Below are positions 54,415 to 57,931 of a stretch of 64,000 bases of DNA, piece by piece. The DNA lies in NCBI RefSeq assembly GCF_028693135.1, contig NZ_JAQUVZ010000013.1, forward strand, positions 1 through 64,000, given 5' to 3'. The position numbers and the translations under genes are program-made. The stretch's first letter is position 1; each line of letters opens with the position of its first letter. The notes beneath the pieces are model-generated. The model made no database searches. It was not told the DNA's origin and saw only the letters and a list, made by a program, of their open reading frames with translations. The DNA comes from Methanosarcina sp. GTDB lineage: Archaea; Halobacteriota; Methanosarcinia; Methanosarcinales; Methanosarcinaceae.

Positions 54415-55533
54415 GTGCGACCGATCTCACAAAGAGTGAACGCTAAGAAAATTCACGAGAAAAATACCGAGCTCGGGAAATCCACATCCGAACTTCTTAT
54501 CCTGAAGGCCGAAGGATATCCCCTGAGCGGCATGATGGAAGAATATCCTGTTATTGAAAACAGGGATGTTTTTGAATTCTATGCACGGGAACAGTGGAAC
54601 GGGAATGTTGCCCGCAAAGGAGATTATCTCTTTGACAAGAGAATGTTCCCTGACTTTGCATACCGCATTATCGATGTGGAACCTGCAGAATCCATAATAG
54701 GAAACTCAACATCCATTATCGTAACTGAAGAGGAAAATGGAATATCTCCCTCTGAAGAGATAAAAAGTGATGTTAAATTTGAAGATGTGATAGGGCAGGA
54801 ACTTGCAAAACAGAAGTGCAGGCTGATCGAGCGCTTTCTGGAAGAGCCCGAACGTTTCGGGAAATGGGCACCAAGAAACATTCTGTTCTTTGGCCCCTCA
54901 GGAACTGGAAAAACCATGCTTGCAAAAGCCCTTGCAAGCAAGACAGATGTGCCGATCATTCCAGTCAAGGCTACCCAGCTAATAGGAGAATATGTCGGGG
55001 ACGGAGCCCGTCAGATCCACCAGCTCTATGACAAGGCAGAAGAGATGTCCCCCTGTATAATTTTCATTGACGAACTTGATGCCATTGCCCTGGACAGGCG
55101 ATTTCAGGAGCTCAGAGGAGACGTAAGCGAGATCGTAAATGCCCTTCTTACAGAAATGGACGGGATAGTTGAACGCGACGGAGTCTGTACCATCTGTTCA
55201 ACAAACCGTGTCAATTCTCTGGACTCTGCTGTGAGAAGCAGGTTCGAAGAAGAGATTGAGTTTGTCCTTCCTGAGGAAGACGAAATTGTTCATATACTGG
55301 AATCAAATGTGAAGACTTTCCCTCTGAAGGCAGAGGAATTTGATTTCCAGACACTTGCAAAGAAAGCTAAAGGGCTTTCAGGCAGGGATATTGTAGAAAA
55401 AATCCTTAAGACCGCCCTTCATCAAGCAATCATCGAAGATAGGGAAATTGTCAGCGGTAAAGACTTTGAAAAAGCCCTTGCAAGATTGGGAAGGAAAGAT
55501 TTTGCTCAGGACCCAACCCATCTGTATGTATAA
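54415..55533 (+). CDS. AAA+ ATPase, archaeal COG1223-like
   Basis: A 372-residue single-ring AAA ATPase. Residues 1-115 are an N-terminal domain I do not recognise (LLILKAEGYPLSGMMEEYPV; VFEFYAREQWNGNV). The ATPase core begins KFEDVIGQELAKQKC. Walker A is GPSGTGKT from residue 160, Walker B has D219 and E220 in FIDELDA, and the arginine finger region is SAVRSRFEEEIEF. The C-terminal helical lid ends DFEKALARLGRKD. The start is GTG 54415. It is close to the AAA proteins that unfold substrates for a protease, but no protease is nearby. The TnpB right end abuts its 3' end. Confidence 0.85.
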   Translation: MRPISQRVNAKKIHEKNTELGKSTSELLILKAEGYPLSGMMEEYPVIENRDVFEFYAREQWNGNVARKGDYLFDKRMFPDFAYRIIDVEPAESIIGNSTSIIVTEEENGISPSEEIKSDVKFEDVIGQELAKQKCRLIERFLEEPERFGKWAPRNILFFGPSGTGKTMLAKALASKTDVPIIPVKATQLIGEYVGDGARQIHQLYDKAEEMSPCIIFIDELDAIALDRRFQELRGDVSEIVNALLTEMDGIVERDGVCTICSTNRVNSLDSAVRSRFEEEIEFVLPEEDEIVHILESNVKTFPLKAEEFDFQTLAKKAKGLSGRDIVEKILKTALHQAIIEDREIVSGKDFEKALARLGRKDFAQDPTHLYV

Positions 55534-55534
55534 A

Positions 55535-55590
55535 CGTGAACTACCCCTCCCTGTCAGGCTAGCGCCTGCTGAGGAAGGGGCTTCCTTCGA
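55535..55590 (-). repeat. Right end (reRNA/omega-RNA hairpin) of the tnpB element
   Basis: Read on the minus strand, GGAAGCCCCTTCCTC pairs across a large loop with GAGGGGTAGTTCAC. It lies just behind the tnpB stop, as expected for the 3' end and guide-RNA scaffold of an IS200/IS605-type element. It begins two bases after the AAA gene stop codon. Confidence 0.75.
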
Positions 55591-55594
55591 GTAT

Positions 55595-56860
55595 TTACTT
55601 CATTTGAAAATCAGATTCTAAGAATCTAATTCTCATCGGTAAACCTGTTTGTCGAAGATTATCTACAAATTGTAGATAGCCTATCCACAAGGCATTCTGT
55701 GATAGGAAACGTACCATGATGTTGATAGCACTATTTCTATCCCTATCAATTACATTTCCACAATCGCATTCCATAGTTCGCTTCCATAAAGGCATATCGT
55801 GCCGTTTTCCACATAGGTAGCATTCTTTGGAAGTATAGCTTTCATCAATTCTTATTACTCTTTTACCTCTGAGCTCTGCTTTATAGGTCAGGAATTCGAT
55901 GAAGCGAGATAAATAACCCTGATTTTGAGTTGATCTATTTCTGGATCTTATCCTCTTAGTTTTCTTCTGCTTTTCCCCATTGATTATTTTGGGTTGAGCC
56001 ATTTTCTTAACTTTAAGATCTCCCACAATAATTGTATTGGCTCTGGTATTTTCTATCATTTTCCTGGATAGTTTATGCTGGAAATCCTTCAGCTGATTGG
56101 ATTTTTTAGTTTCCATCACCCGATAATTTTTATGTAGTTTAAGGTATTTCCTGCTGTTTTTTATACAGTGATCTTTTTTTGATTTTATACTATCCATTTT
56201 CTTTTGCCAATATTTATCAGGTCTGGGAGTTTTGACTTCGTGGATTTTTCCTTTGAGATTGATACAGGTTACTATTTTGGTTATGCCTGCATCAATCGCC
56301 TGATAACATCCGTTGTCAGTATACACTTTGGGAAAAACATCATATATTACGGAAAGGTAAAAGTCTCCTCTGCCTTTGTAAGGATCATCATTGTAGATCT
56401 CTACCTGTCTTACATTTTCTAATTTGAGGTCAATTTCAAACTCAAGAGACGTTTTATTGACAGAGTGAGCAAATTTAATGTTTTCATTGTTAATTTTATA
56501 TCCACTCTGATTATAACATAACGTCATGAAATATTTGCTACTTCGGAACTTAGGAGGTCTTGCCTTCAGGTCTCCGTTTTTCCTGAGTGCAAAAAAGGAC
56601 TTGTAATTAGCATCAAGTTTTTTAAGTACACCCTGGAGAACTTTTGAATAAACCACCTTATATTCAGGATTATTTTCCTTGAATTCAGGCAATTTGTTCT
56701 GCTGTTCTATATACCCTACACTACGTTGTTCATTACGCCATGCGTTTTTTCTATCAGCCAGAGCAAGATTATAGATACATCTACATTTATTGGATAATTC
56801 CCAGAGAACATTAACCTGTTCATCTGTAGGATATATCTTAATCTTTTTTGTTAGCTGCAT
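55595..56860 (-). CDS. tnpB: RNA-guided endonuclease TnpB with altered RuvC-II site
   Basis: A 421-residue TnpB (IS1341-like, no tnpA in the window). It has the N-terminal TnpB fold, RuvC-I aspartate D190 in AIDAGITKIV, a four-cysteine zinc ribbon (CYLCG ... CDCG, residues 347-367) and RuvC-III D374 in DRDRNSAINI. The RuvC-II position reads IIVGDLKVKK: G280 replaces the usual catalytic Glu. E340, in RIDESYTSKEC, takes the place of the usual VDPxYTS proline and could be the substitute acid. Its end is followed by a right-end hairpin. The gene is intact and may be active as a guide-RNA nuclease. Confidence 0.9.
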   Translation of the reverse strand: MQLTKKIKIYPTDEQVNVLWELSNKCRCIYNLALADRKNAWRNEQRSVGYIEQQNKLPEFKENNPEYKVVYSKVLQGVLKKLDANYKSFFALRKNGDLKARPPKFRSSKYFMTLCYNQSGYKINNENIKFAHSVNKTSLEFEIDLKLENVRQVEIYNDDPYKGRGDFYLSVIYDVFPKVYTDNGCYQAIDAGITKIVTCINLKGKIHEVKTPRPDKYWQKKMDSIKSKKDHCIKNSRKYLKLHKNYRVMETKKSNQLKDFQHKLSRKMIENTRANTIIVGDLKVKKMAQPKIINGEKQKKTKRIRSRNRSTQNQGYLSRFIEFLTYKAELRGKRVIRIDESYTSKECYLCGKRHDMPLWKRTMECDCGNVIDRDRNSAINIMVRFLSQNALWIGYLQFVDNLRQTGLPMRIRFLESDFQMK

Positions 56861-56991
56861 GGTTACCCCGACTTTCCATATATTTTTTCAAAGAGTCAAC
56901 TGGCATAGAATATAATATCAATAAAAAGATGAAACTATGAATATATGTATTTAACTAATCACGATGAATATTAATGGGGAAGTTGACGGCT

Positions 56992-57038
56992 TTCATCCCC
57001 CACCTGTCGCTTCGCTCCGAGGAAGGGGACTTCCCGCC
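56992..57038 (-). repeat. TnpB-type hairpin end upstream of tnpB
   Basis: ATCCCCCACCTG ... GAGGAAGGGGACTTCCCGCC has the same layout and orientation as the right end at 55535. It may be the left end of the tnpB element or the right end of a lost neighbour. Confidence 0.55.
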
Positions 57039-57348
57039 TTCTCGTTAAAAGAGAAAGAACATACAAGAGATAGTGCCTTTTAATCCATTTTCTATGAGAT
57101 ATTTTCAGGCACCTCTCTTATGAATCATTTTGTATGTGTCCCTTTACTTTTGACTGCTCTTATAATTTTTCCTTATAGATTAATTTTCCAGTCAATTGAA
57201 ACTTTATTTTCAGGCTTTTGAGTTCATAAGAAGCTTTAATAATTATAACACAATAAAAATTTATTTCAGTATATATTTTTTACTCATTTACATATGTACC
57301 TGATATTTGTATATTTGGGGAATTATCCACATTGATTTGTAGAATCGG

Positions 57349-57392
57349 TGTGAACTGCCCCTGAGCCAAAGATTCAAGGGTTTTACGCTTCC
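57349..57392 (-). repeat. Solo TnpB-type right end
   Basis: GTGAACTGCCCCTGAG ... TTCAAGGG ... GCTTCC, the same pattern as at 31917 (CTACCCCTGAG, CTCAGGGG) with more changes. Confidence 0.45.
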
Positions 57393-57409
57393 TTATATAA
57401 AGATTATTC

Positions 57410-57931
57410 TTAGAATCTGTATTTGAACTCAAAGCCAAATTTATTCAAGAAGAATAATGCCATCATTATAAAAAAGCAAATGAAAGAAACAGATACAAAA
57501 GATATTACAAGATTATGAAGAAATCCGGTTTCCTGAAAATTTACTTTCATCAATGGGAATAGGCTTATTTTTTCATTATAGATTGGATAGAAGTAAGTAC
57601 AATTGGCGCCACAAGCATCATCCAGCAATAGATGAGAAAGGAAAGCAGCTTCGCCAAAAACTCCTAGATATATTGCCTTACCAACCTTCCTATATGCCAT
57701 GTATCCTGCAAGTGTTCCGAACAGGAGCGCAGAAGAACTGAATAGAAGTAAATGTGTTGGGACAGAGCCAATCCAGCAGTATTCAATAGTGCCGTTTACG
57801 AGCAAATTATAAACAACCATGATGTCTGGAAACAGTGCACATAAACTGCTTACAAGTAATAGCAACATTAAGCATTGAACCCTCAAAAGAGGCTTCCCTG
57901 TGAAAAATTGATCTGATAGTAGCATACACAA
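57410..57931 (-). CDS. YdjM/DUF457-like membrane protein, possibly shortened
   Basis: A 173-residue membrane protein with five hydrophobic segments. It carries LFPDIMVVYNLL, THLLLFSS and FLSHLLLDDACGANCTYFYPIYN, the histidine/aspartate motifs of the YdjM/DUF457 family of putative membrane metal-dependent hydrolases. The normal N-terminal segment with its first His motif is absent, and a TAG lies directly before the TTG start, so the gene may have lost its beginning. It stands between solo element ends, which agrees with rearrangement here. Confidence 0.65.
   Translation of the reverse strand: MCMLLSDQFFTGKPLLRVQCLMLLLLVSSLCALFPDIMVVYNLLVNGTIEYCWIGSVPTHLLLFSSSALLFGTLAGYMAYRKVGKAIYLGVFGEAAFLSHLLLDDACGANCTYFYPIYNEKISLFPLMKVNFQETGFLHNLVISFVSVSFICFFIMMALFFLNKFGFEFKYRF

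What the first reader, a model, noticed from the sequence alone, without database searches (positions are those of the whole stretch)
55595..56860. TnpB with displaced catalytic glutamate
The RuvC-II motif reads IIVGDLKVKK, with Gly280 where nearly all TnpB proteins have the catalytic Glu. About 60 residues on, Glu340 stands in IDESYTSKEC, where ordinary TnpB has VDPxYTS. Rearranged RuvC-II sites of this kind have been described for some TnpB and Fanzor proteins; the exact match to those is my inference. D190 and D374 are in place, so the enzyme may be active with a shifted acid.
Basis: partly seen in the sequence, partly recalled or inferred. Interest (0 to 1): 0.6.

Follow-up and report, generated by a model that had tools for sequence, protein, structure and literature searches.

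The report
Archaeal TnpB with displaced catalytic glutamate
This is a mobile-element gene in a methane-producing archaeon for an RNA-guided DNA-cutting enzyme whose third catalytic acid sits at an alternative place, an arrangement already described for a branch of TnpB and Fanzor proteins; the sequence evidence agrees that this copy belongs to that kind.

Summary
The ORF at 55595-56860 (-) encodes a 421-residue TnpB with D190, G280 (canonical Glu place), E340 and D374. It is not a chance substitution. Of 175 aligned TnpB rows, 62 have G280+E340, 110 have E280 without E340, none has both, and 3 are truncated there. On a tree of 118 representatives the state changes only twice (shuffled mean 30.4). 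A confident AlphaFold model puts E340 at the end of a RuvC strand just before the zinc finger, where Fanzors carry their glutamate. Mimivirus Fanzor2 (9b0l) aligns with the same Gly/Glu pair. Distances were not measured: coordinates are not returned. The gene lies in a 1508-bp tnpB-only IS200/IS605-type element (55536-57043), inserted after TTTTAAC and ending in a covarying hairpin, probably the omega-RNA scaffold. Relatives in Halobacteriota often carry an adjacent Y1 TnpA (14 of 43). The 'Ealt' arrangement is in print (Yoon 2023; Nety 2023). Verdict: a new member of a known kind, probably active; modest interest for the archaeal Y1-linked lineage and its predicted TTTAAC TAM.

The parts
55595..56860 (-). 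tnpB ORF, 421 aa, Ealt-type RuvC
56291..56293 (-). codon of D190 (RuvC-I), end of strand 186-190
56021..56023 (-). codon of G280, at the canonical RuvC-II Glu position
55841..55843 (-). codon of E340, the displaced (alternative) glutamate, directly after strand 334-339
55760..55822 (-). zinc-finger codons C347-C367 (CxxC...CxC)
55739..55741 (-). codon of D374 (RuvC-III), start of helix 373-388
55536..57043 (-). whole tnpB-only IS200/IS605-type element (1508 bp), no tnpA inside; left end at 57043, right end at 55536
   Evidence: comparison with paralogues and with empty sites
57044..57050 (-). target/TAM candidate TTTTAAC immediately 5' of the left end
55536..55592 (-). right-end hairpin ending GTTCAC, 3' part of the probable omega-RNA scaffold; covarying stem
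55516..55535 (-). predicted guide region (flanking DNA read just past the right end)
   Evidence: inference from the RE boundary

Best explanation
The protein is a TnpB RNA-guided nuclease whose RuvC triad is D190-E340-D374. The canonical Glu of RuvC-II is replaced by Gly (280), and its metal-binding role is taken by a Glu at the end of the next RuvC strand, in the loop leading into the zinc finger, as in Fanzors. It would bind the omega-RNA formed by the 3' end of its own element, take its guide from the DNA past the right end, recognise TTTAAC as TAM and cut the empty donor site so that the element is retained. Shown: residues, their fixed and mutually exclusive pattern, model topology, element ends, insertion site, RE hairpin covariation, purifying selection. 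Inferred: metal binding by E340, RNA guiding, TAM use and cleavage.
For: G280 and E340 always go together: 62 G/E, 110 E/not-E, 0 both, 0 neither among 172 readable rows of 175. One deep split on the tree, 2 changes against a shuffled mean of 30.4. Model pLDDT 91.5, E340 right after strand 334-339. Fold match to TnpB 8h1j (Z 27.2) and to Fanzor2 9b0l (Z 22.5, 369 residues, 3.9 A). Profile alignment pairs G280 and E340 with G and E of 9b0l. In SpuFz1 the Mg ions are held by E541, D383, N385 and D606 (passage, PMC10432273), with the Glu in the loop between strand 5 and the TNB domain (passage, PMC11423790). Codon rates indicate constraint: dN/dS 0.12 and 0.16 against the two halves of the broken sister copy and 0.13 against L033. 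The RE stem keeps pairing through changes on both sides in 5 of 12 pairs, 23 sequences. TTTAAC lies upstream of the left end in 13 of 13 TnpA-bearing loci examined, 0.90 expected from shuffles.
Against: No catalytic test; side-chain distances not measured since the model's coordinates are not returned. The G369 empty site does not itself read TTTAAC, so the motif has drifted in one of the two genomes or is not strictly needed. The window's copy has no tnpA, so its own mobility is unproven. Only one RII-r5 ortholog is reported active in Nety et al., and it is not known whether this lineage is RII-r5.
Confidence: 0.82

Rival explanations
1. A catalytically dead TnpB: loss of the RuvC-II Glu inactivated the nuclease, and the protein is a relic or works as an RNA-guided binder (TldR-like; name recalled).
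For: Canonical Glu absent; one sister copy in the genome is broken by stops; the window's copy lacks tnpA.
Against: E340, D190 and D374 are fixed in 39 of 39 full rows of the clade; codon rates show purifying selection; omega-RNA-like right ends and adjacent Y1 TnpA in relatives; RuvC-II-rearranged TnpB can cleave (one ortholog).
Confidence: 0.1
2. Another acid, such as D281 next to G280, replaces the canonical Glu, and E340 is structural.
For: D281 is adjacent, and is D in 34 of 42 readable rows of the clade.
Against: Position 281 is K in 7 of those rows and E in 1, while E340 does not vary; the Fanzor structures use the E340-equivalent place (passages).
Confidence: 0.05
3. A chance substitution or sequencing error at codon 280 with an unrelated Glu at 340.
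For: None found.
Against: Same pair in every readable member of the clade across many genomes.
Confidence: 0.01

Closest known systems
Ealt TnpBs, the D-phi-G branch (Yoon et al. 2023, PMC10711439)
   Same: RuvC2 Glu six residues before the zinc finger, none at the canonical place; not DPG at RuvC1
   Different: Second zinc-finger pair is CxC, so the paper's strict expression misses it; window has DAG, most kin DLG. Their sequences were not held, so clade membership was not tested on a common tree.
RuvC-II-rearranged TnpB clades RII-r3 and RII-r5 (Nety et al. 2023, PMC10278001; classification paper not held)
   Same: RuvC-II Glu missing from its usual column, other two acids kept
   Different: Which numbered clade this lineage falls in could not be tested.
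Mimivirus TnpB-like protein L79 / Fanzor2 (PDB 9b0l)
   Same: Fold (Z 22.5) and the Gly/Glu pair in alignment
   Different: About 100 residues longer, from a virus of eukaryotes; low overall identity (21%)
ISDra2 TnpB (PDB 8h1j, 8exa)
   Same: Closest fold (Z 27.2), same domain order, IS200/IS605 setting
   Different: Canonical RuvC-II Glu (recalled: E278); TAM TTGAT (passage) against the predicted TTTAAC here
Pro-Fanzors of cyanobacteria (Yoon et al. 2023)
   Same: Ealt
   Different: They have DPG and IS607 TnpA; here DAG/DLG/DIG, and Y1 TnpA in relatives

Membership tests
RNA-guided TnpB (NCBIfam guided_TnpB NF040570) | Score over the curated cut-off | tested here: met
   187 bits against 100
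RNA-guided TnpB | TnpB fold with RuvC and TNB domains | tested here: met
   pLDDT 91.5; Z 27.2 to 8h1j
RNA-guided TnpB | omega-RNA-like structured right end ending at the element border | tested here: met
   covarying hairpin in 23 sequences, fold z -7.28; transcription not shown; no Rfam match
RNA-guided TnpB | Guided DNA cleavage next to a TAM | not testable with these tools
   needs an assay
TnpB with displaced RuvC-II Glu (Ealt / RII-r) | No Glu at the canonical RuvC-II column | tested here: met
   G280
TnpB with displaced RuvC-II Glu (Ealt / RII-r) | Glu six residues before the first zinc-finger Cys | tested here: met
   E340-x6-C347
TnpB with displaced RuvC-II Glu (Ealt / RII-r) | Glu in contact with the other two acids | tested here: inconclusive
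   topology agrees, distance not measured
D-phi-G Ealt set as written in Yoon et al.'s expression | D{P}G-x(120,160)-E-x6-CxxC-x(12,18)-CxxC-x(4,8)-D | tested here: not met
   fails only because the last pair is CxC; passes when CxC is allowed. So it is not filed under that exact set
Fanzor / pro-Fanzor | DPG at RuvC-I | tested here: not met
   DAG in the window; 29 DLG, 7 DIG, 6 DAG, 1 DTG in 43 clade rows
Fanzor / pro-Fanzor | IS607-type serine TnpA partner | not tested
   no search for the serine recombinase was made; Y1 TnpA is adjacent in 14 of 43
IS200/IS605 element | Insertion 3' of a short fixed motif without target duplication | tested here: met
   joined flanks align to the G369 empty site without duplication; TTTAAC at left ends of kin
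IS200/IS605 element | Y1 TnpA in the element | tested here: not met
   none within this copy (183 bp between left end and tnpB; the genome's three Y1 matches lie elsewhere); present next to 14 of 43 kin. It is called a tnpB-only derivative, not an autonomous element

The most novel reading that the evidence does not exclude
Displaced-Glu TnpB is one deep, old branch that includes a Y1-mobilised lineage in methanogenic archaea with a TTTAAC TAM, and the same genome holds a second, much diverged displaced-Glu family without the usual zinc finger in which some copies read DPG (3 of 7 rows), so the DPG+Ealt combination would not be confined to cyanobacteria and eukaryotes.
Probability: 0.3. Interest if true: 0.42.

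Novelty: new member of a known kind. Interest (0 to 1): 0.25.

Why it matters
It supplies a small (421 aa), well-bounded archaeal TnpB with the Fanzor-type active site, a predicted TAM and a defined right-end hairpin. That makes it a convenient test of whether moving the glutamate changes cleavage: Yoon et al. suggest that the repositioned Glu may lower trans-cleavage (passage). The arrangement itself is not new.

Tried and rejected
Rejected: random substitution (the pair is fixed in the clade); D281 as substitute (varies to K or E); Fanzor or pro-Fanzor membership (DPG not met). A dead enzyme is thought unlikely (purifying selection, fixed acids) and is kept as a rival.

Led nowhere: Rfam on 55000-57600 gave no match up to E 1. 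A pattern for further left ends in the own genome was written with the wrong spacing, missed the window's own copy, and gave as many control hits on one strand as real ones; it is not used. A viral scan with L081 found only itself. The classification paper for the RII-r clades (DOI 10.1073/pnas.2308224120, recalled) is not held. Paper searches made; in their listings I saw no paper on this archaeal lineage, which is no proof of absence. The SpuFz1 chain 8gkh appears in the Foldseek list (E 1.9e-6) but is not among the 50 rows.

Limits of counts: the 175 rows come from loci fetched by likeness to the window, ORFs of 300 aa or more, near-identical ends among the non-viral rows dropped; they are not an unbiased sample, and 7 of the 62 G/E rows are near-copies of one family. 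The 118 tree rows are those of 171 (320 aa or more) under 80% identity to each other, quick method, with long branches (L007, L018, L142, L144) whose place is unsure. The 43 tnpB rows leave out weaker fragments and second halves of split matches; neighbours were picked by eye, whose list is cut, so 14 is a lower bound. 4 of the 21 genomes had no Y1 match at all. TTTAAC was looked at in 13 of the 14 TnpA-linked loci. In one search a right end was recognised in 26 of 44 rows; 23 distinct right ends (some from other loci) went into.

Full report
Observation. The minus-strand ORF 55595-56860 starts with ATG and encodes 421 residues. Pfam and NCBIfam place the protein in TnpB over curated cut-offs. 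The window is the start of contig C77 of an 89-contig, 4.2-Mb genome; that it is Methanosarcina-like is my inference from the nearest named relative (Methanosarcina sp. Ant1).

Not chance. I aligned 175 TnpB rows from the own genome, the phylum, named genomes and viral contigs. 62 have Gly at 280 and Glu at 340, 110 have Glu at 280 and something other than Glu at 340 (Pro in 89), 2 have Gly and are cut short, and 1 is cut before both; no row has both Glu or neither. In the Halobacteriota clade 39 of 43 rows read D/G/E/D and 4 are truncated. On a tree of 118 representatives, with the trait columns left out, the label needs 2 changes (shuffled mean 30.4, 0 of 500 as low), and 19 rows of the archaeal family form one starred clade (99). 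The sample was gathered by likeness, so this describes these rows, not all TnpB.

Structure. With 69 rows, AlphaFold gave mean pLDDT 91.5 and pTM 0.85. D190 ends strand 186-190, G280 lies in strand 276-281, E340 follows strand 334-339, and D374 is the second residue of helix 373-388. Best fold matches are TnpB 8h1j (Z 27.2, 3.5 A, 348 aligned), ISFba1 TnpB 8iaz (Z 26.7) and 8exa (Z 26.6); mimivirus Fanzor2 9b0l has Z 22.5, 3.9 A, 369 aligned. In the profile alignment, Gly and Glu of 9b0l stand opposite G280 and E340. Passages of the Fanzor papers put the catalytic Glu in the loop between the fifth strand and the TNB domain (PMC11423790) and list E541, D383, N385 and D606 as Mg ligands in SpuFz1 (PMC10432273). 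E340 has the same topological place. I could not measure the distance, because the tool returns no coordinates.

Element. Comparison with a sister copy (L012, 94% identical DNA over 1515 bp, tnpB broken) and with L010 bounds the element. It runs from 57043 (left end) to 55536 (right end), 1508 bp, and its right end lies 2 bp past the stop codon of a PRS2-like AAA ATPase gene on the other strand. It lies 3' of TTTTAAC and ends GTTCAC. Relatives G139, G369 and G339 have the site without the element; the joined window flanks align to G369 without a duplication, whereas G139 and G339 are 17-18 bases shorter there. The G369 site does not read TTTAAC.

Guide RNA and transposase. Right ends share ACTCGNAGGAAG (with small variation) and a stem before GTTCAC. 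In 23 distinct right ends 12 pairs are predicted and 5 keep pairing through changes on both sides. The window's last 145 nt fold at -56.7 kcal/mol, z -7.28. No Rfam family matches. Same-strand Y1 TnpA lies within 1 kb upstream of 14 of 43 clade tnpBs, 12 of them within 16 bp. In the 13 of these 14 loci that I read, all 13 have TTTAAC about 500-620 bp before tnpB, in front of the left-end hairpin (0.90 expected from shuffles). The window's copy has no tnpA. The genome holds one further intact member (L010, 66%), the broken C3 copy and several fragments.

Selection. Window tnpB against the two halves of the broken C3 copy: dN/dS 0.16 and 0.12; against L033: 0.13 (against L053 and L010 dS is saturated). 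Intact close pairs in the clade mostly give 0.08-0.33, and pairs with truncated copies are often higher, up to 0.75.

Comparison with what is known. Yoon et al. 2023 (section 23 read; passages) separate TnpBs into Ecan and Ealt, and Ealt into D-phi-G and DPG branches. Nety et al. 2023 (passages) name RuvC-II-rearranged clades and report one active RII-r5 ortholog. The window's protein has the Ealt features and not DPG. It misses Yoon's strict expression only at the CxC, a shortening shared by most kin and seen also in a canonical TnpB, L080. So it is a TnpB of the displaced-glutamate kind; its exact published clade was not tested.

Verdict. It is a new member of a known kind. What is added here is an archaeal, Y1-linked lineage with a predicted TTTAAC TAM, a defined element and a covarying right end.

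Noticed in passing
own genome, loci L018-L025 (e.g. L020:1411-2643): A second, much diverged multi-copy TnpB family with Gly at RuvC-II and Glu in EESHTSK, NADVN at RuvC-III and no regular zinc finger. Of 7 full-length rows 3 read DPG and 4 DLG at RuvC-I.
   Followed up: partly
57358-57400: A repeat found many times in related genomes; in G236 copies lie 21 bp downstream of Y1 TnpA genes, so this is probably a right-end remnant of a TnpA-only IS200-type element.
   Followed up: partly
L147, L150, L151, L153, L155, L158, L167, L178, L192, L198 (viral contigs): Ten displaced-Glu TnpBs on viral contigs with an altered first zinc-finger motif form one starred clade (100).
   Followed up: no
L012 (own genome C3:24729-25987): A 94% identical sister copy of the whole element with a tnpB broken by stops, pointing to recent mobility or duplication.
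   Followed up: partly
L062, L063, L065, L069, L086: Clade members with E or K at position 281 beside G280, showing that the neighbouring acid is not required.
   Followed up: yes
L080: A canonical-Glu TnpB that also has a CxC second zinc-finger pair, so the shortening is not tied to the displaced Glu.
   Followed up: no
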